Shown: positions 41,482 through 51,802 of the stretch, piece by piece
Position numbering within the stretch: the stretch's first letter is position 1
Layout: the number at the start of each line of letters is the position of its first letter
NCBI RefSeq assembly: GCF_030433855.1
Contig: NZ_JARUXC010000014.1
Location: 1 to 64,000 of the forward strand
DNA: 64,000 bases
Origin: Agreia sp. PsM10
Lineage (GTDB): Bacteria > Actinomycetota > Actinomycetes > Actinomycetales > Microbacteriaceae
Direction of reading: 5' to 3'
Program-made: the position numbers and the translations under genes
The notes under the pieces: generated by a model
Databases searched by the model: none
Seen by the model: the letters and a program-made list of their open reading frames with translations, nothing else
What the model was told of the DNA's origin: nothing

Positions 41482-41726
41482 GCGAGCGCCGGCCGTCGAT
41501 TCATGATGTGACGCTAAGAGCCGACGGCATCCGAAGGGTGAACCAGCCGGAGCGGGCAGATGAACGCAGGGCCAACGGTCGTGTATCCGGCTCGTATTGT
41601 GTGATATGTCTGGAGCGTTTCACAAGCATTAAATGCCGATTACGAGATCGACGCACCCCATTAGGGGGCCACCGAAGTGGCTATGGTCGTGTGCGGACGG
41701 GGGACTCCACAAACGAAAGCCACAGT
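41482..41726. other. intergenic region upstream of the pterin operon
   Basis: The stretch marks a drop in GC relative to the left flank. It contains a GCCAC-CGAA-GTGGC hairpin near 41669-41682 and several AT-rich segments (TTCACAAGCATTAAATG near 41618) but no promoter or riboswitch I can name. The promoter of the five-gene operon must be here. Confidence 0.4.
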
Positions 41727-42161
41727 ATGAATTCTCTGATCACATGCACCCGCCGACTGCATTTCAGTGCCGGGCATCGAGTGATGAATCATGAATCGAA
41801 ATGTTCGACGGCTCACGGCCATAACTACTATGTGCGCATCACCGCGACAGCTAGCTCCCTAGACGAGATCGGTCGTGTGATCGACTTCGGCGTTCTCAAA
41901 GAGAAAGTTGGAGGTTGGATCGATACAAACTGGGATCACACGTTTCTCGTGAACAGGCACGACACCGACGTTCTCGCAGCCCTGTTGTCGATGCCTCGCG
42001 CGAAAGACCCTTTCGTCTGTGATTTCAATCCGACCGCCGAAGAGATGGCGCATTTTCTTCTCGATGAGGTCTGCCCAGATGCGCTGCAGGGCACGGGCGT
42101 CACAGTGACGAAAGTGAGCGTAGAAGAGACCAGCAACTGCATCGCGGAGGCTTCACGCTGA
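41727..42161 (+). CDS. queD: 6-carboxytetrahydropterin / 6-pyruvoyltetrahydropterin synthase-like
   Basis: A 144-aa tunnelling-fold enzyme. All hallmark residues are present: first zinc His in LHFSAGH (residues 11-17), catalytic C-x-x-x-H-G-H (CSTAHGH near 29-35), a catalytic NWDHTF segment (~72-77) and the C-terminal substrate Glu in SVEET. It converts 7,8-dihydroneopterin triphosphate to a 6-substituted tetrahydropterin; the C-x3-HGH form fits QueD. ATG 41727 starts a protein of normal length. It heads a five-gene overlapping operon with FolE immediately downstream (TGATG overlap). No QueE or QueC follows, so classical queuosine synthesis is not encoded here. Confidence 0.88.
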   Translation: MNSLITCTRRLHFSAGHRVMNHESKCSTAHGHNYYVRITATASSLDEIGRVIDFGVLKEKVGGWIDTNWDHTFLVNRHDTDVLAALLSMPRAKDPFVCDFNPTAEEMAHFLLDEVCPDALQGTGVTVTKVSVEETSNCIAEASR

Positions 42162-42859
42162 TGACCGATCTACGCAAGTCAGCAGTCGACACGCTGGATG
42201 AATCGATTGAAACCATGCTGAGCCCATCCCCCACATCGCTGCGCATTCCGTACCCCTGGAACGAGAATGGCCTCACCGATGCCGAGAAAGTTCACCGGAT
42301 CGAATCGAACTTCAGGGAGATCCTCGCCACTCTCGGACTCGATCTGAATGACGATTCGATCCGAAACACGCCGAATCGCTATGCCAAGATGCTGGTCCAT
42401 GAAGTCTTCGAGGGCCTGAGCGAGGCGGCGTATCCGAAGATCACTACACAATCGAACACGTTCGGCTATCGCTCTCCCCTCATCGAGACCGGTATTTCGA
42501 TCGAAAGTATTTGCGAGCATCATTTCGTTCCGATTCTCGGGTACTGCCACATTGCCTATGTTCCGGAAGATCGAGTTATCGGCCTTTCGAAACTCAATCG
42601 AGTAGCGAAGTACTTCGCCCGCCGCCCTCAGGTACAGGAACGCTTGACGCGCCAGATCGCTCAGGAACTGGCAGAGATTCTCGGAACCGAGAGCGTCGCC
42701 GTCGCCGTCGATGCCGTACATCTCTGCGTTCGAATGCGTGGAATTCGAGACCACAACGCGCTGACGAGGACCATCGACCTCGGCGGACAGTTCCTCAGCG
42801 GCCCGATCCGAGATGAATTCTTCGGAGCAATACCCGATACAAGCAGCCAGCTCTCGTGA
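42161..42859 (+). CDS. folE: GTP cyclohydrolase I
   Basis: A 232-aa FolE-family enzyme that converts GTP to 7,8-dihydroneopterin triphosphate. The zinc-binding ICEHHF near residue 112 and the second Cys in VHLCVRMRG near 190 are present, as are the GLSKLNRVAKYFARRPQVQERL substrate segment and the N-terminal DDSIRNTPNRYAKML helix. About 45 extra residues at the N terminus are not conserved. Coupled to the QueD-like gene (start overlaps its stop) and to the next gene (4-bp overlap). Being outside the usual fol operon and low in GC, it is probably a second, dedicated FolE; a housekeeping copy may be elsewhere. Confidence 0.93.
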   Translation: MTDLRKSAVDTLDESIETMLSPSPTSLRIPYPWNENGLTDAEKVHRIESNFREILATLGLDLNDDSIRNTPNRYAKMLVHEVFEGLSEAAYPKITTQSNTFGYRSPLIETGISIESICEHHFVPILGYCHIAYVPEDRVIGLSKLNRVAKYFARRPQVQERLTRQIAQELAEILGTESVAVAVDAVHLCVRMRGIRDHNALTRTIDLGGQFLSGPIRDEFFGAIPDTSSQLS

Positions 42860-44235
42860 GCCGCTTCCTGACCGATCGAATCGCGTGGGATATCGACGTC
42901 GCAGATTTTCGCGACGGTGGAAACTTCGACCACATGGTTCGTCGCCTTCAAACGGAAAATTTCGATCTTCTCGTGGAGCGCGAGTGCAGAGAGGTTGCAC
43001 CCTTCCTTCACGCTTGGGAAGCGGAGATCAGATCGGCTGAGCATTGGCCTGGACTCGGCGGCGGGCGCAACCTCGAGACGCTCTTTCAGGAGGCACCCGT
43101 CGCGAGCGGAGTGCTCTACATCTCGAGAAACCATACGATCTCGGAGTCATTTTTCCAGGACGTAACGAGCGAGAAGACCCACCTCACCGACCGTGTGGTG
43201 CATCCGAGTATTAGAGACGCACTAGCTGTTTCGCACGACCTCACGTTCTCCTTCCCGAGGACATACACGTTCGATGGTTATGTCAATAGTTGGGGCTTCA
43301 TCAGGATTGATCGTGAGTTGAACGACGCGCGAGGCGCCGGAGTATTGCTTAGCGTGACTACGCTCGATCCCGAGGTAATGCGACTTCTGCAAACCAGTGG
43401 GTTTGAGCACGTGGTCGAGCTATATGATCACGCCTGGGATCACGCCATCCACGACTATCTGCATCACATCGCGCTTTACACCAATCCGTCGTTCGGAATC
43501 GGAAAGCTAAGTCCGATGTCTTTGGCTGCCGCAGCCGCAGACGTCGAATCCTGGGGCGCAGACATGATGAGCACCTTCAACTATGAATACTGGGCGCATC
43601 GCACTCATCGTTCATTGACTGCAGGTCTGTTGACCTCCGATGATCACGAAGCGATATTGACTCATGCCATCCGTTACTTCGAGGCAGTCGCATCCTTCGT
43701 GGAAACGATAGGGAAGGGCCACAACAACGACCCCCTCTCCACCCGCCTCTGGAGTTACCTCTCGTCGATCTACCTGTGGCCGCTCCATATTGTCGTTCAT
43801 CCGATGGACAGCCTGTTCGAGAAGATAGGCGACATTGTGAACGGCTTGCAGCACCCAGATACGGAACGCCTCAGGGAAACCCTCGGCGCCCCGCTAAGGC
43901 ATCTGCAAGCGGAATCAGAAGAATCGAGAGACCCCAGAATCATGGGCCTGCGGGGTGTCGTCCGAGACATACTCGGCACTGACGACCTCAACGATGCGAC
44001 GCACCTGATGAAGCTTTCGTGGTTCGACCTACTTCGTATCCGCGTCGAGTTCGAGGCCCAGCGAGGTCTCTATGAAGGCTGGTACCACGACGAACCGATC
44101 ATGTTCGCGGGCCGTCCCGTCTCTGCAACCAAGACGGCGAAGAACATCATCGAACACGTCGATTCCGCTGTTCGTTCTGTAAAAGCACGGTCACACTCCC
44201 TTGGCCCATACAAATTGAAAGGAATCGTTCCGTGA
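42856..44235 (+). CDS. unrecognised 459-aa protein of the pterin operon
   Basis: I do not recognise this protein. It is 459 aa, soluble, with no membrane segment or signal peptide. Notable is a histidine/aspartate-rich stretch around residues 190-205 (ELYDHAWDHAIHDYLHH) that could bind metal, plus further H/E/D residues near 245-260 (FNYEYWAHRTHRSL). The C-terminal third is helical. The GTG start at 42856 overlaps the folE stop by 4 bp and its own stop overlaps the next gene by 4 bp, so it is translated with them. One sample line within it (42901-42960) is 50% G+C against ~70% in the neighbouring core genes. Given its partners, an enzyme that makes or uses a tetrahydropterin is the simplest guess, but that is inference. 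Confidence 0.75.
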   Translation: MSRFLTDRIAWDIDVADFRDGGNFDHMVRRLQTENFDLLVERECREVAPFLHAWEAEIRSAEHWPGLGGGRNLETLFQEAPVASGVLYISRNHTISESFFQDVTSEKTHLTDRVVHPSIRDALAVSHDLTFSFPRTYTFDGYVNSWGFIRIDRELNDARGAGVLLSVTTLDPEVMRLLQTSGFEHVVELYDHAWDHAIHDYLHHIALYTNPSFGIGKLSPMSLAAAAADVESWGADMMSTFNYEYWAHRTHRSLTAGLLTSDDHEAILTHAIRYFEAVASFVETIGKGHNNDPLSTRLWSYLSSIYLWPLHIVVHPMDSLFEKIGDIVNGLQHPDTERLRETLGAPLRHLQAESEESRDPRIMGLRGVVRDILGTDDLNDATHLMKLSWFDLLRIRVEFEAQRGLYEGWYHDEPIMFAGRPVSATKTAKNIIEHVDSAVRSVKARSHSLGPYKLKGIVP

Positions 44236-44537
44236 ACATTCCAGAAATCGCAAATATTGTCGGCATTGTCGGCGTCTCGATTGTCGTAGTGACTTACTTT
44301 CTTCTCCAGATATCTGTTCTCAAAGTCAGCGACCTCAGCTATTCCTCCCTCAACGCCACAGCCTCGGTGCTCGTACTCTTCTCGCTGGCTTTTCATTGGA
44401 ACCTATCGTCAGCCATCATCGAGATCTTCTGGCTGGCGATCAGCATCTACGGGTGCATCGCCTGGCTGCGGCAGAGGATCAAGGCGTCACATACAGATGT
44501 GGCAGATCCGGAAGGAGTCACCGATGCAGCACGATGA
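44232..44537 (+). CDS. small membrane protein (CBU_0592-like)
   Basis: A 101-aa protein with three hydrophobic helices (about 8-27, 38-55, 60-78) ending in SIYGCIAWLRQRIK, a pattern like the small membrane family named after CBU_0592 (Y-F-L-L-Q in helix 1, YSSLN, FWLAISIYG). Function unknown. GTG 44232 overlaps the preceding stop (GTGA); its 3' end overlaps the next gene by 14 bp. It may anchor or supply the operon product at the membrane. Confidence 0.7.
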   Translation: MNIPEIANIVGIVGVSIVVVTYFLLQISVLKVSDLSYSSLNATASVLVLFSLAFHWNLSSAIIEIFWLAISIYGCIAWLRQRIKASHTDVADPEGVTDAAR

Positions 44538-44880
44538 TTCGACGGATCTTCTGGTCTTCTCCTACGGAGCTCTGCAAAGACGAGAGGTTCAAGAAGCCAT
44601 GTTCGGACGCGCATTCGAGTCGCGGCCTGCTCACCTCTCAGGATTCGAAGTCATCGAGGTTCCGGTACCCGCAGATCATCACGACCCGATCTTCGGCACG
44701 AGCGACACCCGACTCGTTCTCCAACCATCCGCTCATCCGGATTCGATCTTGAGAGGGCAGCTTCTCGCACTGACACCAGAAGAATTGCGCATTGCGGACG
44801 GCTTCGAGGCCCCCGAATACGCGCGGCAATTAGTCCGGATCGACAACGAGATCGAGGCTTGGGTTTACTTCCCCGTCTGA
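44524..44880 (+). CDS. gamma-glutamylcyclotransferase-like (AIG2 fold) protein
   Basis: A 118-aa protein with the GGCT/AIG2 barrel fold: VFSYGALQRREV (substrate-loop Y-G-x-L), the mid segment RGQLLALTPEELRIADGFE and APEYARQLVRI, where the acidic residue of the ring-closing catalysis is expected. Family members cyclise gamma-glutamyl amines or peptides; many small AIG2-like proteins have unknown substrates. ATG 44524 follows GGAAGGAG. It closes the five-gene operon, so its substrate is probably an intermediate or product of it. Confidence 0.75.
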   Translation: MQHDDSTDLLVFSYGALQRREVQEAMFGRAFESRPAHLSGFEVIEVPVPADHHDPIFGTSDTRLVLQPSAHPDSILRGQLLALTPEELRIADGFEAPEYARQLVRIDNEIEAWVYFPV

Positions 44881-44926
44881 TTGGAGCGCGTCGGCCGACC
44901 ACTCGTAGCCCGCGCCTGACTCCCGG

Positions 44927-45433
44927 TTAGCCGAGCTTGCTCCACGGTTTGAACGTCGGGGCTGCGGGCGACACGGGCCGCGTGACGCCGCCGCGAGTCT
45001 GCCTGATTGCCGAATTCAGGTAGAAAGCGCAGACGATCACGTTGAACACGAGGCTGGCTATCCACTCGCCGAGCGTGAGGCGGTTCGAAGCGCTTTCCTC
45101 AATAACGCCGGTCACGGTGAGTACAACGAATACGAGCGTAAATGCTGTGCCGACCAACAGGAGGATGCCCAATCGCCGGCTGAGTTTGGGCCACGCGGTC
45201 ATCTGCCACCAGGGGCGCGCGGGAGTGACCGGTTCTCCTGCGCCCCGAAAAATGCGCGTGGCCAGAAAGATCACCGCGAGCAGCACGATCGAATCGATGA
45301 TGTTCACGGCAAGAGGGTGCAGGCCCACAGCCGAGAGAAGCGCGAGAAAGGGGTACCTGATCAGGCAGACGACGACGATGTAGGCCAGTTTGATCGGCCA
45401 GCGAGTGATTCGAAGATCGAGGATTCTGTGCAC
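44927..45433 (-). CDS. small integral membrane protein of unknown function
   Basis: A 168-aa protein with four hydrophobic segments (about 13-30, 37-62, 90-112, 122-142) and a proline-rich C-terminal tail. The GTG start at 45433 (then CACAGAATCCTCGAT) lies inside a 5' segment that is nearly duplicated in front of the lipoprotein gene at 45608-46165. No domain recognised. It converges with the pterin operon. Confidence 0.75.
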   Translation of the reverse strand: MHRILDLRITRWPIKLAYIVVVCLIRYPFLALLSAVGLHPLAVNIIDSIVLLAVIFLATRIFRGAGEPVTPARPWWQMTAWPKLSRRLGILLLVGTAFTLVFVVLTVTGVIEESASNRLTLGEWIASLVFNVIVCAFYLNSAIRQTRGGVTRPVSPAAPTFKPWSKLG

Positions 45434-45548
45434 GCTAAAGACTTCTCTCGTCGGGCCGCCGTGTTCGCGACATGAGCCATGGCGAGTGCGCGGTCCCCGA
45501 ATCGATCACCCTCGACGAATCTATCGAAGTCGGGCGAATGTTTCTTCT
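45415..45548 (-). repeat. duplicated 5' region, copy A
   Basis: The first codons (GTG CAC AGA ATC CTC GAT) of the membrane-protein gene and ~115 bp upstream are closely matched by copy B at 46147-46270, including ATTCTGTGCACGCT, GCGGTCCCCGAATCGATCACC and CTATCGAAGTCGGGCGA. Both copies are on the same strand and in the same position relative to a start codon, implying a duplicated promoter and ribosome-binding site. Confidence 0.8.
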
Positions 45549-45607
45549 TGTTTATTGAGTAGCCGTCGACGCATTGCCGCAAGCAAATCATTGGGCGGCG
45601 GCAGCCT

Positions 45608-46165
45608 CTAATCGGCCGCGCACTCGAGCGCGAACGTGAGGGTCGCGTCGACTCTGACGGCGTCGTCGGTGTCGAGCTCGGCAACACGCAGATCGGTCGA
45701 TGACCTCTCGAGGATGAGCACCTCACCCGGAATCTCGGTGCCAAACATGATGCCGTCGTCCTCGTTCAGCACGGCACCCTTGCCGGTGAACAAGACGGCG
45801 AAGTCGGATACGGCCCATGCGCCGACGAACACATCATCGCCTGCCCTATCTGGGATGCTCGCGCCCGAGTCGTCGGCTGCCGACCACGTACTCCACTGCG
45901 CGGCGCCGTCGGGTTGGCAGAGCGGGCGATCGGGGTGGCCGGTCACCGTAACCTCCCTGCCCTCGTGCTCGAAGGAGATCTCGACGGTAGGCGCCTCGCC
46001 GGCCTGGGCGGGAGGTGAATTCTGTGTCGTCGGCTCTGTGCTCCGGTCGTCGGAGAGCGGACCAGGAGTGCATCCGACGAGCCCGACCGCGACGGCGGCC
46101 GTCACCATGAGCAGGGCCGCCGCCCTCATGCGGCTACCCGCGGTGCGATCGAGGATTCTGTGCAC
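45608..46165 (-). CDS. lipoprotein of unknown function
   Basis: A 185-aa secreted lipoprotein: after the shared MHRILD start, a hydrophobic segment ends in the lipobox VGLVGC (Cys about residue 32), followed by a disordered S/T/P-rich linker and a ~120-residue beta-rich acidic domain with no recognised family. ATG 46129 is a possible later start, but GTG 46165 is preferred because it corresponds to the start of the membrane-protein gene that uses the same duplicated leader. Confidence 0.72.
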   Translation of the reverse strand: MHRILDRTAGSRMRAAALLMVTAAVAVGLVGCTPGPLSDDRSTEPTTQNSPPAQAGEAPTVEISFEHEGREVTVTGHPDRPLCQPDGAAQWSTWSAADDSGASIPDRAGDDVFVGAWAVSDFAVLFTGKGAVLNEDDGIMFGTEIPGEVLILERSSTDLRVAELDTDDAVRVDATLTFALECAAD

Positions 46166-46270
46166 GCTGAAACTTCTTTCGTCGGGCCGCTCATTCGCGA
46201 CATCAGTCGTGGCGAGCAAGCGGTCCCCGAATCGATCACCCTCGGCAAATCTATCGAAGTCGGGCGACAG
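46147..46270 (-). repeat. duplicated 5' region, copy B
   Basis: Near-identical counterpart of copy A at 45415-45548, here in front of the lipoprotein gene. A few small indels distinguish the copies (for example GCTGAAACTTCTTT here against GCTAAAGACTTCTCT there). The coding sequences that follow are unrelated, so only the regulatory leader was duplicated or captured. Confidence 0.8.
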
Positions 46271-46284
46271 ATTCTCGTTGTCTT

Positions 46285-46656
46285 CTAGGCGCTCTCGACT
46301 CGCCGCGCCGCGAGCGCCGCGGCCACCCGCCCGATCAGGTCATACGGGATCGGTTTCGAGTACGGAAAGTTGATCGAGTCTTTGGCTGCGCGATAGGGCG
46401 CGATCTCTTCTTCGAGCGCGTCGTGTTCGCCGTCGTCGAGCCGAGCGACCGGATAGAGGCCGACGAACTTCTTCCAGGCGGCGTAGTGCAGCCCGTAGCG
46501 GCCGTCGAACATGACGGCGGGCATGTCATAGCGGTACTTCTCTTCACCGCCGGGCACCGCCTCGAGCAGAACTCGTCTGATCTCGCGCAGGATCGCCTGC
46601 TGCTCGGCGGGCTGCGACTCGATGTACTCGTCGACCGAGGTGAACCTCTCTGTCAT
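46285..46656 (-). CDS. DUF1801/YdhG-type protein
   Basis: A 123-aa soluble protein of the DUF1801 (YdhG, iron-chaperone-labelled) family: SVDEYIESQPAEQQAILREIRRVL at the start, a central EEKYRYDMPAVMF segment, a YPVARLDD stretch and a DSINFPYSKPIPYDLIGRV end, the usual family pattern. Function unproven. ATG 46656 is used; the longer frame does not resemble the family. Divergent from a second DUF1801-like gene at 46798. Confidence 0.87.
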   Translation of the reverse strand: MTERFTSVDEYIESQPAEQQAILREIRRVLLEAVPGGEEKYRYDMPAVMFDGRYGLHYAAWKKFVGLYPVARLDDGEHDALEEEIAPYRAAKDSINFPYSKPIPYDLIGRVAAALAARRVESA

Positions 46657-47394: not shown

Positions 47395-48756
47395 TTACCC
47401 GGTTCCGGCTTCACGGGCGTCAAACGTGTCGCCGTCATCAATCTTGATGGTCGGTCTCCTCGTCCTCTTCCCCGGTAGTTCGTCGACCAGCGCATCAACT
47501 ATTGGCTGCGCTTTCGTGCGAGACAGCGTCAATAGGGATGCATCTCCGAGCGATATTGCAGCGCGAAGCGCGCTCGGCGCATAGGTCAGTGATCCCAGGA
47601 GCGCGAGAGCTGCCGCTCGCGCGAGTGGCGGCGGGACGCTATTGCCGACCTGTCGATGCCCATGCCAATTGGTGGTGTGGAACCGGAACCAGTCTGGGTA
47701 GCCATGCAGCCGCGCCGCTTCCCGCACAGTTACAACACGATTCTCATGAGGGTGAATCGGCCGCGGAGACGTATGCGACCCTCTCTCAGAGCCAGTGCCC
47801 GCCCTTAGCGTTCGAGAAGGCCCATCGAGTGGGAGCCTGTATAGGCGACTCTTAGGTTCGACCGCTCCGCGCTCGGTTAGCGCGAACCGCTGGACCGTCT
47901 CCGCTGTGTGAACGGTCCGACGCGACCCTGTCAAGCGGGATGGTTCCCACAACCTTGGTCTCGACTTGTCACCAGGCAGTACGTCGACACCAGCTAATGC
48001 GCGCGCGTATGGGCTCTTGATCGATGCTCGCCTCTTAGCATCCTCTGGGTTGAGTTCTACCTCATCCGATTCGAGCAGTCCGTCATAGTCGATAGGCGAC
48101 GGCAGCCCATCAAGGGCTTCTTCCACTGACACCTCGCCCTCGATGGGAACAGGACGCGACGGAGCGGCCCCACCCAGCGCCCCCAGTACGATGACTCTCC
48201 GGCGGGTCTGCGGCACACCGAAATGAAGACTGTTCACGGGCTTGTCGGTCCCAGAGAGCGAATACCCAGCCTTTCGGAGTCGGTCGAACGCTTCCTCGCG
48301 AACGTCATCGAATTTCTTCTCGAGCAGGCCCGCCACGTTCTCCAGACAGAAGGTCTGTGGCTTGAGCTCTTCAACCATTCGAACAAAATGCAGAAGCAGG
48401 TTGTTGCGCTCGTCACCCTGTTCGCGCTTTCCCCCAGTGGAGAAACCTTGACAAGGCGGGCCGCCGATCAGTGCATCGATCCGGCCCGGCCAAGGGACAC
48501 CGGGGTGGAGCCGCCGAAAGCCGCGCTCGGCAGCTGCCATCACATCAACAGGCAGAAGCTTCGAGGCGTCACGACATACGACCTCACCCTGAGGAAAGTT
48601 GAAGGCATGAGTAGCGGCATGAACGGGATCGTATTCCACAGCAGCGACCACATCATAGCCTGCCTGTTCAAACCCGAGACTCATTCCGCCTGCGCCGGCG
48701 AAAAGATCTACTGCGATGGGCCGCGTCGAACGCGCTCGGCTAGTGGATAGAGGCAT
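47395..48756 (-). CDS. DNA (cytosine-5-)-methyltransferase
   Basis: A 453-aa C5-cytosine methyltransferase (466 aa if started at 48795; ATG 48774 is also possible). The motif order is canonical: I (VDLFAGAGGMSLGF), IV with the catalytic Cys (GGPPCQGFS, about residue 102), VI (ENV), VIII (QTRRR), target recognition region between ~220 and 330, IX (RLHGYP) and X (QVGNSVPP). A C-terminal extension of ~75 residues follows motif X. It transfers methyl groups from SAM to DNA cytosine. It is divergent from a GHKL ATPase and a methyltransferase-like gene with ~90 bp between starts; no restriction nuclease is recognised. GC is lower than in core genes. Confidence 0.94.
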   Translation of the reverse strand: MPLSTSRARSTRPIAVDLFAGAGGMSLGFEQAGYDVVAAVEYDPVHAATHAFNFPQGEVVCRDASKLLPVDVMAAAERGFRRLHPGVPWPGRIDALIGGPPCQGFSTGGKREQGDERNNLLLHFVRMVEELKPQTFCLENVAGLLEKKFDDVREEAFDRLRKAGYSLSGTDKPVNSLHFGVPQTRRRVIVLGALGGAAPSRPVPIEGEVSVEEALDGLPSPIDYDGLLESDEVELNPEDAKRRASIKSPYARALAGVDVLPGDKSRPRLWEPSRLTGSRRTVHTAETVQRFALTERGAVEPKSRLYRLPLDGPSRTLRAGTGSERGSHTSPRPIHPHENRVVTVREAARLHGYPDWFRFHTTNWHGHRQVGNSVPPPLARAAALALLGSLTYAPSALRAAISLGDASLLTLSRTKAQPIVDALVDELPGKRTRRPTIKIDDGDTFDAREAGTG

Positions 48757-48847
48757 CCTACGACGATCGCACATCTTGCACTCGAACGCACGCAACTAGA
48801 GACCCCGTGTTCCCTTCGGGCCAGCAGAAGTCGGGCATCATGTGTAA

Positions 48848-50263
48848 ATGGTCACATCTACCCCTGACACGACGATCGATGCTGGCGCCGAGAAACGTTT
48901 CTTCATCGAAATGCTAACGAAGGACATCGAGCTACTCCCCGCCATCGTTGATCTCCTCGACAACAGCGTGGACGGAGCACGCGGCCTCCACCCCGATGGC
49001 GATCTATCGGGACAATGGGTGAAGATTAATTTCGGCAATGGCTCCTTCACAATTGCGGACAACTCAGGTGGCATCTCGGCTGAAATCGCTCGACATTACG
49101 CATTCCGATTCGGGCGCTCCAAAAGTTTCACGGGCGTGAAACGCTCAGTTGGTCAATTCGGTGTCGGAATGAAACGCGCCATATTCAAGATCGGGAACGC
49201 TTTTTCTGTCGAATCTGCCCACCGCGGTGCGACCGGCAAGGATGACGGCTCACGCTTCGATCTGGAAGTAGACGTTGAGGACTGGGCCATCCAGGGCGAC
49301 TGGACATTCCAGTTCAACAGAGTAGAAGAGAACATTTCTCTCTTGCCGATCGAGGCAGCAGGAACGATGATCTCGGTGACGAACCTTCATCCGAGTGTCC
49401 AAGACGATCTGAACGATCCCACCATCGTGCAGGCGCTGCGGACTGAACTGCGGATTCGTCATCAAGAGTCAATCCAGAGCGGATTACAACTGTTTCTCAA
49501 TAGCGACAAGCCACTTTCGGCGTCGAGGCCATCACTCCAAGCATCAGACGTTGTGCGACCGGTCTTCAAAGAATTTCAAGTCTCTGGGGCTGACGGCGGC
49601 GTTGTGGATGTGAAGCTTTATGCCGGAACCGTAGCGCCGCCGAAGCGCGAGAAAGAAATCGATCCCGAGGACGATGGTCAGGCAGAGAACTTCCAAGACC
49701 CTGGTGACGCCGGGTGGTACCTCTTCTGCAACGACAGGCTGTTGCTCGTCGCAGACAGGACACCCATCACTGGGTGGGGCAATCCAGCAGCCGCGTACCA
49801 CCCCCAGTACCGTCTCTTCAGAGGCTTCGTCTACCTTTCGGCAGACGATGCCAGCCTCTTGCCGTGGAACACAACAAAGACCGCCGTCGACCGTGACTCA
49901 CCTGTGTTCCGGGCGGTTCAGTCGGAAATGAAGACAACGCTAGTCGCAGTGCAAGCCGTGATTAACCGCGCAAAACAGGTACGCGCTCGTGTTGAGGACG
50001 AGGATGTGAAGCCCGATTTGCTCGTAGCTCTGGACGAAACACCTGACAAACCAATCAGTTCGCTCGCGACTTCGTCGCAGATGGTCACTCCGGCTGCTCC
50101 GCCACCCAAGCCGAAGGCTCCTCCAACACCCAAGATTCAACGTATCCAGTATGCCGTTGACTTGGACCGATTTGAGGAGGTTGCCCAAGCGATAGGGGCA
50201 AGCAGCGGTTCTGAAGTTGGCCGCCTCACCTTCGACTACTTCTACGACCAAGAGATCGACTGA
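48848..50263 (+). CDS. GHKL (MORC-like) ATPase
   Basis: A 471-aa protein of the GHKL ATPase superfamily (gyrase/Hsp90/MutL/MORC). The N-box LLDNSVDGA (residues 36-44), the G1 box IADNSGGI (~69-76) and the G2 lid GQFGVGMKRA (~102-111) are all intact, so it should bind and hydrolyse ATP. Residues ~250-470 are an unassigned partner domain with a proline-rich linker (PPPKPKAPPTPK near 415). Prokaryotic MORC-like ATPases have been linked to DNA modification and defence operons. Its stop overlaps the start of the next gene (TGATG); it is divergent from the cytosine methyltransferase. Confidence 0.85.
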   Translation: MVTSTPDTTIDAGAEKRFFIEMLTKDIELLPAIVDLLDNSVDGARGLHPDGDLSGQWVKINFGNGSFTIADNSGGISAEIARHYAFRFGRSKSFTGVKRSVGQFGVGMKRAIFKIGNAFSVESAHRGATGKDDGSRFDLEVDVEDWAIQGDWTFQFNRVEENISLLPIEAAGTMISVTNLHPSVQDDLNDPTIVQALRTELRIRHQESIQSGLQLFLNSDKPLSASRPSLQASDVVRPVFKEFQVSGADGGVVDVKLYAGTVAPPKREKEIDPEDDGQAENFQDPGDAGWYLFCNDRLLLVADRTPITGWGNPAAAYHPQYRLFRGFVYLSADDASLLPWNTTKTAVDRDSPVFRAVQSEMKTTLVAVQAVINRAKQVRARVEDEDVKPDLLVALDETPDKPISSLATSSQMVTPAAPPPKPKAPPTPKIQRIQYAVDLDRFEEVAQAIGASSGSEVGRLTFDYFYDQEID

Positions 50264-51156
50264 TGGCACGTCAGTATGAGTTTCGGCCGGCAAAGGCAGC
50301 TCAACGCATGATGATTGTCGATGCCTGTCGAAGGCTGACCGCGATTGCTCCTCTCGTCAAGTATCAATACGTCGGTTTTGGAGGGTTGGAGTTTATAGAC
50401 TTCGTCGAGTTCCACCGGGGACTCGGCGTTCCTCAGATGACGAGTATTGAGCGCGACACGAACATGCAGCACCGGCTCGACTTCAACAAGCCCTATAAGA
50501 GCATTCGTGTTCTAATGGGCGAAGCCCGCGACCAACTCCCTCAAGTTGACTGGACTCAATTGTCCATAACTTGGCTCGACTACACCGACGTGCTCACCAC
50601 CGACATTCTGCGAGACGTTGACTTCGTTGTGCGCTCCAGCCAACCTGGCAGCATCGTCATTGTCACCGTAAATGGCGCTACGACAAAAGTCCCGGTTCCT
50701 GAACGTCTGAGCAACCTCCGCGCTAGCCTAGGCAGCCACGTAGACGACTCCCTCACCGAGAAAGACATGGCAGGCTGGGGACCCACCAAACTCGAACGAA
50801 GCGTTCTCCAAGCAACCGCGCACGCGGCTGGAAGGCAGGCTCACGGTTTGCCTTTTCGTCAACTCTTCAACTTTCACTACGCGGATGACGCGAAGATGCT
50901 GACATGGGGTGGCATCACCACCAGCTCGTCTTTAGATCGGACAATTGATTCGTGCCGCTTCGAGGATCTTCATTTCATTCGCGGCGACGACGACCCATTC
51001 GAGATAAACGTGCCCGTGCTCACCGAGAAAGAAATCGCCTATCTGGAAACGGAGCTTGTTGGAATCCCGACTCCACTACCGCAGATCAGAGGAATTTCGT
51101 CTGCGGAGATAAAAGCTTTTGCTCAGGTCTATCGGTGGCGAGTCGGCTCGCGCTAA
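50263..51156 (+). CDS. methyltransferase-like partner of the GHKL ATPase
   Basis: A 297-aa protein whose first ~180 residues look like a SAM-dependent Rossmann fold: VGFGGLEFIDF (motif I, around 37-47), SIERD (end of strand 2, near 65) and WLDYTDVL (near 105, motif IV position). The rest has no recognised domain. Its role is unclear: it could methylate, or it could only bind a nucleotide. Translation is coupled to the ATPase. I do not recognise a named defence system with this exact pair plus a C5 methyltransferase. A CGAGGG-AA-CCCTCG hairpin follows its stop. Confidence 0.72.
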   Translation: MARQYEFRPAKAAQRMMIVDACRRLTAIAPLVKYQYVGFGGLEFIDFVEFHRGLGVPQMTSIERDTNMQHRLDFNKPYKSIRVLMGEARDQLPQVDWTQLSITWLDYTDVLTTDILRDVDFVVRSSQPGSIVIVTVNGATTKVPVPERLSNLRASLGSHVDDSLTEKDMAGWGPTKLERSVLQATAHAAGRQAHGLPFRQLFNFHYADDAKMLTWGGITTSSSLDRTIDSCRFEDLHFIRGDDDPFEINVPVLTEKEIAYLETELVGIPTPLPQIRGISSAEIKAFAQVYRWRVGSR

Positions 51157-51520
51157 TCAGAACGAATCTTGTGAGCCGAGGGAACCCTCGCGGTTTGTTG
51201 GTTCCTCCCGACTGACCGCTCGTGGGCTCGCCAACTGCCCCACTAGCCCTGAATGGGAAGAATCGATCCTACGTAGCGCGGAGTATTCGATCACAATGAG
51301 CTTCTCCCGCCAACTGCGAAGTAAATTGGCCTCCATGTCTGCCCTATGTAGGAACACATGTGTTGCTAGGAGAATCTGCAAGTGCGAGCCACAGGCCGTC
51401 GGCTACTTCTCAAGTCGTTGATCCCTCAGGCCACGACCAACATGTCAATCTCGCCGAAGTAGCCGATCCGTCGCGGCGTCATAGTTGCCAATACCAAGCC
51501 GAGGATCAACATGATTCGTC
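51157..51520. other. intergenic stretch before tRNA-Arg, no gene seen
   Basis: No convincing coding region is present. A short hairpin CGAGGG-AA-CCCTCG (51177-51190) may terminate the upstream operon. TCGGCTACTTC (51399-51409) and GAAGTAGCCGA (51456-51466) are a perfect 11-bp inverted pair 46 bp apart. CTACGTAG occurs near 51272. No integrase remnant or duplicated tRNA end was found by eye. Confidence 0.45.
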
Positions 51521-51595
51521 TGGTGCCCCTGGAGGGACTCGAACCCCCAACCTGTTCCTTAGGACGGAATTGCTCTTCCATTGAGCTACAGAGGC
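51521..51595 (-). tRNA. tRNA-Arg (anticodon CCU)
   Basis: The 75-nt minus-strand gene has acceptor GCCTCTG pairing with CAGGGGC, discriminator A and encoded CCA (3' end at 51521). The anticodon arm is ATTCC-GTCCTAA-GGAAC (one A-C mismatch at the stem base) with anticodon CCT, reading AGG arginine codons; T loop TTCGAGT. Its 3' end points to the left, toward the lower-GC block, the orientation expected at an integration hot spot. Confidence 0.93.
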
Positions 51596-51630
51596 TGGCC
51601 TTTAGGAGTTTAGCTTAGAGGCGAGGTCGG

Positions 51631-51671
51631 GTGGTCTCGATACGGTCGCTGCGCGACCTACTCGACCAGCG
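51631..51671. repeat. REP-like element, copy 1
   Basis: Begins GTGGTCTCGATACG and ends CTACTCGACCAGCG; in between GGTCGC-TGC-GCGACC is a perfect hairpin and the ends (TCGA...TCGA) can pair further. The whole unit folds as a stem-loop of the type common in Microbacteriaceae intergenic regions. Confidence 0.7.
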
Positions 51672-51685
51672 CATCCGGCGGGATG

Positions 51686-51736
51686 GTGGTCTCGATACGC
51701 GTCGGCCGCGGGCGGCCTTTGGCTACTCGACCAGCG
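51686..51736. repeat. REP-like element, copy 2
   Basis: Same boundaries as copy 1 (GTGGTCTCGATACG at 51686, CTACTCGACCAGCG ending 51736) with a different central hairpin, GGCCG-CGGG-CGGCC. It follows copy 1 after 14 bp, between tRNA-Arg and the HNH gene. Confidence 0.7.
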
Positions 51737-51802
51737 CAAATCAGTCAACACGGCGAAGCCGTCAATAAATAGGGCACGGCGAAGCCGTTCGATAGCCAGC
51801 TG

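What the first reader, a model, noticed from the sequence alone, without database searches (positions are those of the whole stretch)
41727..44880. Five-gene pterin operon with an unrecognised central protein
QueD-like synthase, FolE, a 459-aa protein with no recognised domain but a DHAWDHAIHDYLHH-type stretch, a small membrane protein and a cyclotransferase-like protein are all overlapping, so they are made together. It is not the queuosine/preQ0 set (no QueE or QueC) and not a normal folate operon. It may make or use a dedicated tetrahydropterin, and the 459-aa protein could be the new enzyme.
Basis: partly seen in the sequence, partly recalled or inferred. Interest (0 to 1): 0.7.

Follow-up and report, generated by a model that had tools for sequence, protein, structure and literature searches.

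The report
Pterin operon with candidate new hydroxylase
A small, apparently mobile gene cluster makes its own pterin cofactor beside a very rare protein of unknown kind that may be a new pterin-using oxidising enzyme; the link rests on conserved neighbours and a short iron-site-like motif, not on experiment.

Summary
The operon is real: QueD-like synthase, FolE, a 459-aa protein (here X), a small membrane protein and a GGACT-like protein, with overlapping ends. X has no credible match in Pfam, NCBIfam, PHROGs, PADLOC or PDB sequences. Three distant relatives were found (38-42% identical), one in Mycolicibacillus, two in Chlamydiota. All three keep the QueD-like gene and the membrane protein with X; two keep FolE there, and the third has that FolE type elsewhere. 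Operon FolEs resemble each other (53-61%) more than housekeeping FolEs (33-44%). QueC is absent from 3 of 4 genomes. Both chlamydial operons add a pterin-4a-carbinolamine dehydratase, the recycling partner of pterin-dependent hydroxylases. X carries an invariant H-x4-H-x39-E set in a stretch that aligns with the iron motif of aromatic amino acid hydroxylases (hhalign P 0.0039; 1 of 414 shuffles as high). That likeness spans only 17-18 residues, Pfam does not see it, and no structure could be predicted. Best reading: FolE and the QueD-like enzyme make a tetrahydropterin, probably 6-carboxytetrahydropterin, as cofactor for X, a candidate hydroxylase. GGACT is outside the conserved core.

The parts
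41727..42161 (+). PTPS/QueD-like tetrahydropterin synthase, 144 aa, motif CxxxHGH (CSTAHGH)
   Evidence: PF01242; motif; below NCBIfam QueD cut-off, 80.5 of 89.25 bits
42161..42859 (+). GTP cyclohydrolase I, FolE, a second copy of a type distinct from the housekeeping one
   Evidence: PF01227; two copies per genome; identities
42856..44235 (+). protein X, 459 aa, new family, candidate tetrahydropterin-dependent hydroxylase
   Evidence: no credible family match; three relatives; alignment
43450..43587 (+). codons of X residues H199 to E244: candidate iron site H199, H204, E244 with acidic D200 beside H199
   Evidence: invariant in 4 of 4; hydroxylase comparison
44232..44537 (+). small CBU_0592-family membrane protein, 101 aa
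   Evidence: NF047864; 44-49% identical in 3 relatives; hydropathy
44497..44880 (+). GGACT/AIG2-like protein, likely start 44524; not part of the conserved core
   Evidence: PF06094; upstream AAGGAG; absent from the 3 related loci
41585..46301 (.). stretch without counterpart in the nearest comparable genome G140, low GC: the inserted piece that holds the operon
51521..51595 (-). tRNA-Arg (cct) at the right edge of the larger variable low-GC region

Best explanation
The operon is a horizontally acquired cassette of cofactor synthesis plus enzyme. Its own FolE turns GTP into dihydroneopterin triphosphate and its QueD-like enzyme turns that into a tetrahydropterin, most likely 6-carboxy-5,6,7,8-tetrahydropterin; without QueE and QueC the product is not passed on to preQ0. 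X binds one iron through H199, H204 and E244 and uses the tetrahydropterin and O2 to hydroxylate an unknown small molecule, in the manner of aromatic amino acid hydroxylases. In the chlamydial versions a carbinolamine dehydratase recycles the spent 4a-hydroxypterin; in the actinobacterial versions this is left to spontaneous dehydration or, in Mycolicibacillus, perhaps to a dehydratase encoded elsewhere. The small membrane protein ties the reaction to the membrane or moves substrate or product. Shown: gene order, conservation, motifs, a second FolE of its own type. Inferred: the pterin, the iron site, the hydroxylase activity, the membrane role. The substrate is unknown.
For: Gene set conserved over two phyla: QueD-like gene, X and membrane protein in 4 of 4 loci, FolE in 3 of 4. 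Operon-type FolE distinct from the housekeeping FolE in each of 4 genomes. PTPS-I/QueD motif CxxxHGH (PMC5041015 passages) but no QueC in 3 of 4 genomes. Carbinolamine dehydratase fused to the membrane protein in L004 and next to it in L010. No aromatic hydroxylase in 3 of 4 genomes that could use the pterin instead. X stretch on the hydroxylase iron motif: hhalign P 0.0039, controls FolE and PTPS alignments 12.4 and 12.9 against 30.2; best of 98,946 gapless 46-column windows puts E244 on the ligand Glu; 0 of 2000, 2 of 2000 and 1 of 414 shuffles as high; spacing 40 against 40-42 in 10 of 11 hydroxylases.
Against: The likeness covers 17-18 residues only and a global comparison gives nothing. 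Pfam Biopterin_H is not detected at E up to 10, and the X core does not find hydroxylases among PDB sequences. Over 46 columns a chance site scores 13.8, above two of the four X proteins. The hydroxylase family was picked after the spacing had been noticed, so the P values are not from a blind test. The dehydratase is in only 2 of 4 loci, the window's genome has none, and that family also serves molybdopterin metabolism (PMC3223725 passages). No structure could be predicted.
Confidence: 0.5

Rival explanations
1. X takes the 6-carboxytetrahydropterin (or another tetrahydropterin) as substrate and makes a new pterin or deazapurine product, in the place of QueE and QueC, with the membrane protein as exporter.
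For: The QueD type is that of preQ0 clusters: five of five tested ORFs between QueD-like gene and FolE in viral contigs are radical SAM proteins. QueE and QueC are missing from the operon. X always stands with the QueD-like gene.
Against: It does not explain the carbinolamine dehydratase in both chlamydial operons nor the hydroxylase-like motif.
Confidence: 0.25
2. X is a metalloprotein of another kind (hydrolase, sensor or structural partner); the hydroxylase-like stretch is chance or convergence.
For: Further invariant His (H203, H248, H251, H311, H315, H411) could form another metal site; the likeness is short and not found by Pfam or PDB sequence searches.
Against: Shuffle controls, the Glu spacing, and the pterin genes around X.
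Confidence: 0.15
3. The pterin genes serve folate, queuosine or molybdopterin supply and X is an unrelated passenger.
For: FolE is shared by folate and queuosine pathways; G495 does have QueC; carbinolamine dehydratases can serve molybdopterin metabolism (PMC3223725 passages).
Against: Each of the 4 genomes has a separate housekeeping-type FolE; no folate-type ExxHGH motif; no QueC in 3 of 4; X stays with the QueD-like gene over two phyla.
Confidence: 0.1

Closest known systems
Phenylalanine hydroxylase systems phhA-phhB (Biopterin_H PF00351 with Pterin_4a PF01329)
   Same: Pterin supply or recycling next to the enzyme; H-x4-H-x39-E spacing and HD/HE motif; dehydratase partner in the chlamydial operons
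   Different: X is not detected by PF00351; likeness limited to 17-18 residues; the pterin is made by a QueD-like enzyme within the operon
preQ0/queuosine cluster FolE-QueD-QueE-QueC
   Same: FolE and a QueD-type enzyme with CxxxHGH, nearest viral relatives lie in such clusters
   Different: No QueE or QueC in the operon, no QueC in 3 of 4 genomes; X and a membrane protein instead
Tetrahydrobiopterin pathway (FolE, PTPS-II, sepiapterin reductase)
   Same: FolE plus a PTPS-family enzyme making a tetrahydropterin cofactor
   Different: Motif CxxxHGH, not CxxxxxHGH; no gene read as sepiapterin reductase beside the operon (not searched genome-wide)
Alkylglycerol monooxygenase (fatty acid hydroxylase motif)
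   Same: Pterin use is proposed; several conserved His
   Different: Integral membrane enzyme with eight-His motif (PMC3617469 passages); X has no membrane-like segment in 4 of 4

Membership tests
Biopterin-dependent aromatic amino acid hydroxylase (PF00351) | Match to the family profile | tested here: not met
   no PF00351 match for 4 of 4 X proteins or their cores at E up to 10
Biopterin-dependent aromatic amino acid hydroxylase (PF00351) | Two His and one Glu iron ligands with typical spacing | tested here: met
   H199, H204, E244 invariant in 4 of 4; spacing 40, in hydroxylases 40-42 in 10 of 11 and 56 in one; iron binding itself untested
Biopterin-dependent aromatic amino acid hydroxylase (PF00351) | Acidic residue beside the first His, pterin contact (Glu286 of phenylalanine hydroxylase) | tested here: met
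   D200 invariant; role of Glu286 from PMC3617469 passages
Biopterin-dependent aromatic amino acid hydroxylase (PF00351) | Similarity over the catalytic domain | tested here: not met
   alignment of 17-18 columns only
Biopterin-dependent aromatic amino acid hydroxylase (PF00351) | Catalytic-domain fold | not testable with these tools
   structure job interrupted, then tool switched off
QueD, 6-carboxytetrahydropterin synthase (PTPS-I) | CxxxHGH motif | tested here: met
   4 of 4 operon proteins; motif from PMC5041015 passages
QueD, 6-carboxytetrahydropterin synthase (PTPS-I) | NCBIfam TIGR03367 equivalog cut-off | tested here: not met
   80.5 bits, cut-off 89.25
preQ0/queuosine cluster | QueE and QueC partners | tested here: not met
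   neither in the operon; QueC absent from the window's genome and from 3 of 4
GTP cyclohydrolase I FolE | Curated profile cut-offs | tested here: met
   PF01227, TIGR00063, NF006824, NF006826
CBU_0592 family membrane protein | NF047864 cut-off | tested here: met
   window protein 85.8 bits, cut-off 25; the three relatives were aligned only
Pterin-4a-carbinolamine dehydratase (chlamydial operons) | PF01329 cut-off | tested here: met
   L004 83.7 and L010 85.9 bits, cut-off 26; activity motif recalled, fits both
Alkylglycerol monooxygenase / fatty acid hydroxylase | Integral membrane protein | tested here: not met
   no 19-residue window above 1.6 in 4 of 4 X proteins

The most novel reading that the evidence does not exclude
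X founds a new class of tetrahydropterin-dependent oxygenase, beside the aromatic amino acid hydroxylases, nitric oxide synthases and alkylglycerol monooxygenase, and runs on 6-carboxytetrahydropterin, a queuosine-pathway intermediate taken over as a redox cofactor, in a cassette that moves between phyla together with its own cofactor synthesis.
Probability: 0.3. Interest if true: 0.85.

Novelty: new variant of a known kind. Interest (0 to 1): 0.62.

Why it matters
Few enzyme classes are known to use tetrahydropterins. A transferable operon that carries both a pterin synthesis of its own and a protein of no recognised family makes a possible new pterin-dependent chemistry directly testable. 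It would also give 6-carboxytetrahydropterin, known as a queuosine intermediate, a second role, and would warn against annotating FolE-QueD pairs without QueE and QueC as queuosine genes.

Tried and rejected
Queuosine/preQ0 reading: rejected for the window (QueE and QueC not in the operon, no QueC in the genome). Folate-type PTPS-III (ExxHGH) and tetrahydrobiopterin-type PTPS-II (CxxxxxHGH): rejected by motif. Defence system: the operon genes have only weak PADLOC matches (FolE 12.2, membrane protein 11.8, GGACT 14.8 bits; X and QueD-like none); the strong match is the separate cytosine methyltransferase. Phage or plasmid home of X: no relative in plasmids or phages (window X only) nor in viral contigs. 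Alkylglycerol monooxygenase: no membrane segments. Membership of PF00351: not filed, profile test failed. PDB sequence searches with the X profile and with its core led nowhere. Paper searches listed 7 of 7, 0, 20 of 31, 20 of 4,673, 10 of 20, 12 of 134, 12 of 288 and 8 of 24 papers; none of the listed titles and abstract starts describes this operon, and none of the 12 listed holds the word CPH4. This is not proof of absence from print. Gamma-glutamyl theme (GGACT in the window, class-I glutamine amidotransferase beside both chlamydial operons, 37% identical to each other): too weak to use. A viral-contig scan for the L012 hydroxylase found no relative.

Full report
Observation. Pfam and NCBIfam name four: PTPS/QueD-like, FolE, CBU_0592 membrane protein and GGACT. 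The 459-aa protein, X, has no match above any cut-off in Pfam, NCBIfam, PADLOC or PHROGs (best E 0.25, 0.031, none, none), and profile searches of PDB sequences give only unrelated matches at E 0.3 or worse.

Setting. The window's 42-52 kb rows have GC 0.56-0.62 against 0.64-0.73 elsewhere. On the right, homology to the 7 other same-genus genomes begins at 51515-51523, the end of a tRNA-Arg gene (in six directly; in G343 through a separate short piece). On the left, of six genomes whose stretch was fetched, three (G140, G192, G278) match the flank up to 41579-41584; the fetched stretches of the other three show no left flank. In G140 the place of the operon holds about 456 bases with a different small gene, and then the DUF1801 genes follow. 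X is in 1 of 398 sampled genomes of the window's family, the window's own, and in 0 of the 7 other same-genus genomes. So the operon looks like a recent arrival in a variable region next to a tRNA gene.

Relatives of X. A scan of one genome for each of 84,980 species with six exact 8-residue patterns, among them FNYEYWAH (later found invariant), gave 9 stretches, 2 of them relatives: Mycolicibacillus koreensis (L003) and a Chlamydiae MAG (L004). Profile searches found 2 of 232 genomes of the MAG's phylum (the MAG and G495), and only the already known genome in 401 of the Mycolicibacillus family, 397 of its order and 396 over the window's phylum; these sets overlap. None in plasmids, phages or viral contigs. 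X is rare and scattered over two phyla.

Co-conservation. L003: QueD-like, FolE, X, membrane protein. L004: QueD-like, FolE, X, then one protein with the membrane part at its N-terminus and a pterin-4a-carbinolamine dehydratase at its C-terminus (E 9.8e-24), then a glutamine amidotransferase. L010, from G495: glutamine amidotransferase, QueD-like, X, membrane protein and a separate dehydratase (E 2.1e-24); no FolE lies between, but an operon-type FolE stands with a second QueD-like gene elsewhere in that genome. Over the four loci: QueD-like gene, X and membrane protein 4 of 4, FolE 3 of 4, dehydratase 2 of 4, amidotransferase 2 of 4, GGACT 1 of 4. The membrane proteins of the relatives are 44-49% identical to the window's.

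A FolE of its own. Each of the 4 genomes has two FolE genes. Operon-type FolEs are 53-61% identical to each other across phyla and 33-44% to the housekeeping-type ones, three of which were compared as partial domains. The QueD-like proteins are 59-67% identical to the window's, X 38-42%.

Which pterin. The QueD-like proteins carry CxxxHGH in 4 of 4, the PTPS-I/QueD signature; CxxxxxHGH marks PTPS-II and ExxHGH PTPS-III (PMC5041015 passages; PMC5445326 passages). In viral contigs 46 of 69 candidate stretches encode relatives, 34-58% identical. A profile found the QueD-like ORF in 44 of these 46 loci (45 ORFs; L104 and L105 missed) and FolE in 36 of the 44, four of them 1.7-4.6 kb away; 8 had none. 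Five ORFs lying between the two genes were tested and five are radical SAM proteins; in L067, L071 and L077 a gene that reads by eye as QueE lies just upstream. So this QueD type belongs to preQ0 clusters and the expected product is 6-carboxytetrahydropterin. The window protein is below the NCBIfam QueD cut-off (80.5 of 89.25 bits), so this remains a prediction. QueC is missing in 3 of 4 genomes; G495 has two.

Why a hydroxylase. Carbinolamine dehydratase recycles tetrahydropterins, and phhB stands with phhA in several bacteria (PMC3458870 passages). The L004 genome has a second dehydratase gene, one gene away from a true aromatic hydroxylase, which suggests that the operon copy serves another enzyme. 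The other three genomes have no aromatic hydroxylase. Both operon dehydratases fit an activity motif that I recall (its source paper was not held). Against: the family also serves molybdopterin metabolism (PMC3223725 passages), the Mycolicibacillus operon has none (one lies elsewhere in its genome), and the window's genome has none at all (G495 was not in that search).

Iron motif. The X stretch IHDYLHHIALYTNPSFG resembles the hydroxylase motif, for example FHEIFGHCAMLTNPAFA in L110. hhalign of 4 X proteins against 11 hydroxylases gives score 30.2, P 0.0039, on exactly this stretch; against the FolE and PTPS alignments 12.4 and 12.9. HMMER with filters off gives single-comparison E 0.0085-0.021 for 4 of 4 X proteins, each with this stretch among its domains. 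The best of 98,946 gapless 46-column windows sets H199 on the first ligand His and so E244 on the ligand Glu, z 6.2. After shuffling X columns, 0 of 2000 reach the 18-column score, 2 of 2000 the 46-column score and 1 of 414 the hhalign score of 30.17. The second His to Glu spacing is 40 in X; in hydroxylases 40 in 6, 41-42 in 4 and 56 in 1 of 11. E244 is the only invariant acidic residue after D200. D200 stands where phenylalanine hydroxylase has Glu286, which is involved in pterin interaction (PMC3617469 passages).

Limits. The likeness is 17-18 residues long; a global comparison gives none. Pfam and PDB sequence searches with the core do not return hydroxylases. Among 72 H[DE]xxxH sites in the fetched DNA (4 of them X) the X sites are the top four over 16 columns (34.7-37.4 against 21.3), but over 46 columns a chance site at 13.8 beats two of the four. 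I turned to the hydroxylases after noticing the spacing, so these are not blind tests. Structure prediction failed and was then switched off.

Verdict. The operon is a mobile-looking pterin cassette built on a preQ0-type front end and ending in a new protein family. That X is a tetrahydropterin-dependent hydroxylase is the best-supported mechanism (about 0.5). Membership of the aromatic hydroxylase family is not claimed.

Noticed in passing
window 47395-51156: Cytosine-5 DNA methyltransferase (minus), a HATPase_c_3 protein and a Methyltransf_35 protein (both plus) form a low-GC group beside the tRNA-Arg; it could be a restriction-modification or defence-like module. Only the methyltransferase matches PADLOC.
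   Followed up: partly
window about 51630-51740: A dispersed repeat with two blocks, matched at many places in the window's genome and in most same-genus genomes.
   Followed up: no
L010 9215-9976 and L004 10245-10931: Class-I glutamine amidotransferases, 37% identical, stand at opposite ends of the two chlamydial operons.
   Followed up: partly
L057 4801-5933 (G495): A second QueD-like and FolE pair of the operon type, without X, in the same chlamydial genome.
   Followed up: partly
L012 5591-7642 (G399): Aromatic hydroxylase with an unusually long His-to-Glu spacing (56), then a 232-aa membrane protein that reads by eye like a preQ0-transporter type, then a carbinolamine dehydratase.
   Followed up: no
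L065, L067 and L077 (viral contigs): The ORF with the FolE match (282-288 aa) has an extra N-terminal stretch that reads by eye like a phosphoribosyltransferase domain; no family search was run.
   Followed up: no
window 44927-46219 (minus): Two ORFs of 168 and 203 aa with no Pfam or PADLOC match lie in the inserted piece beside the operon.
   Followed up: no
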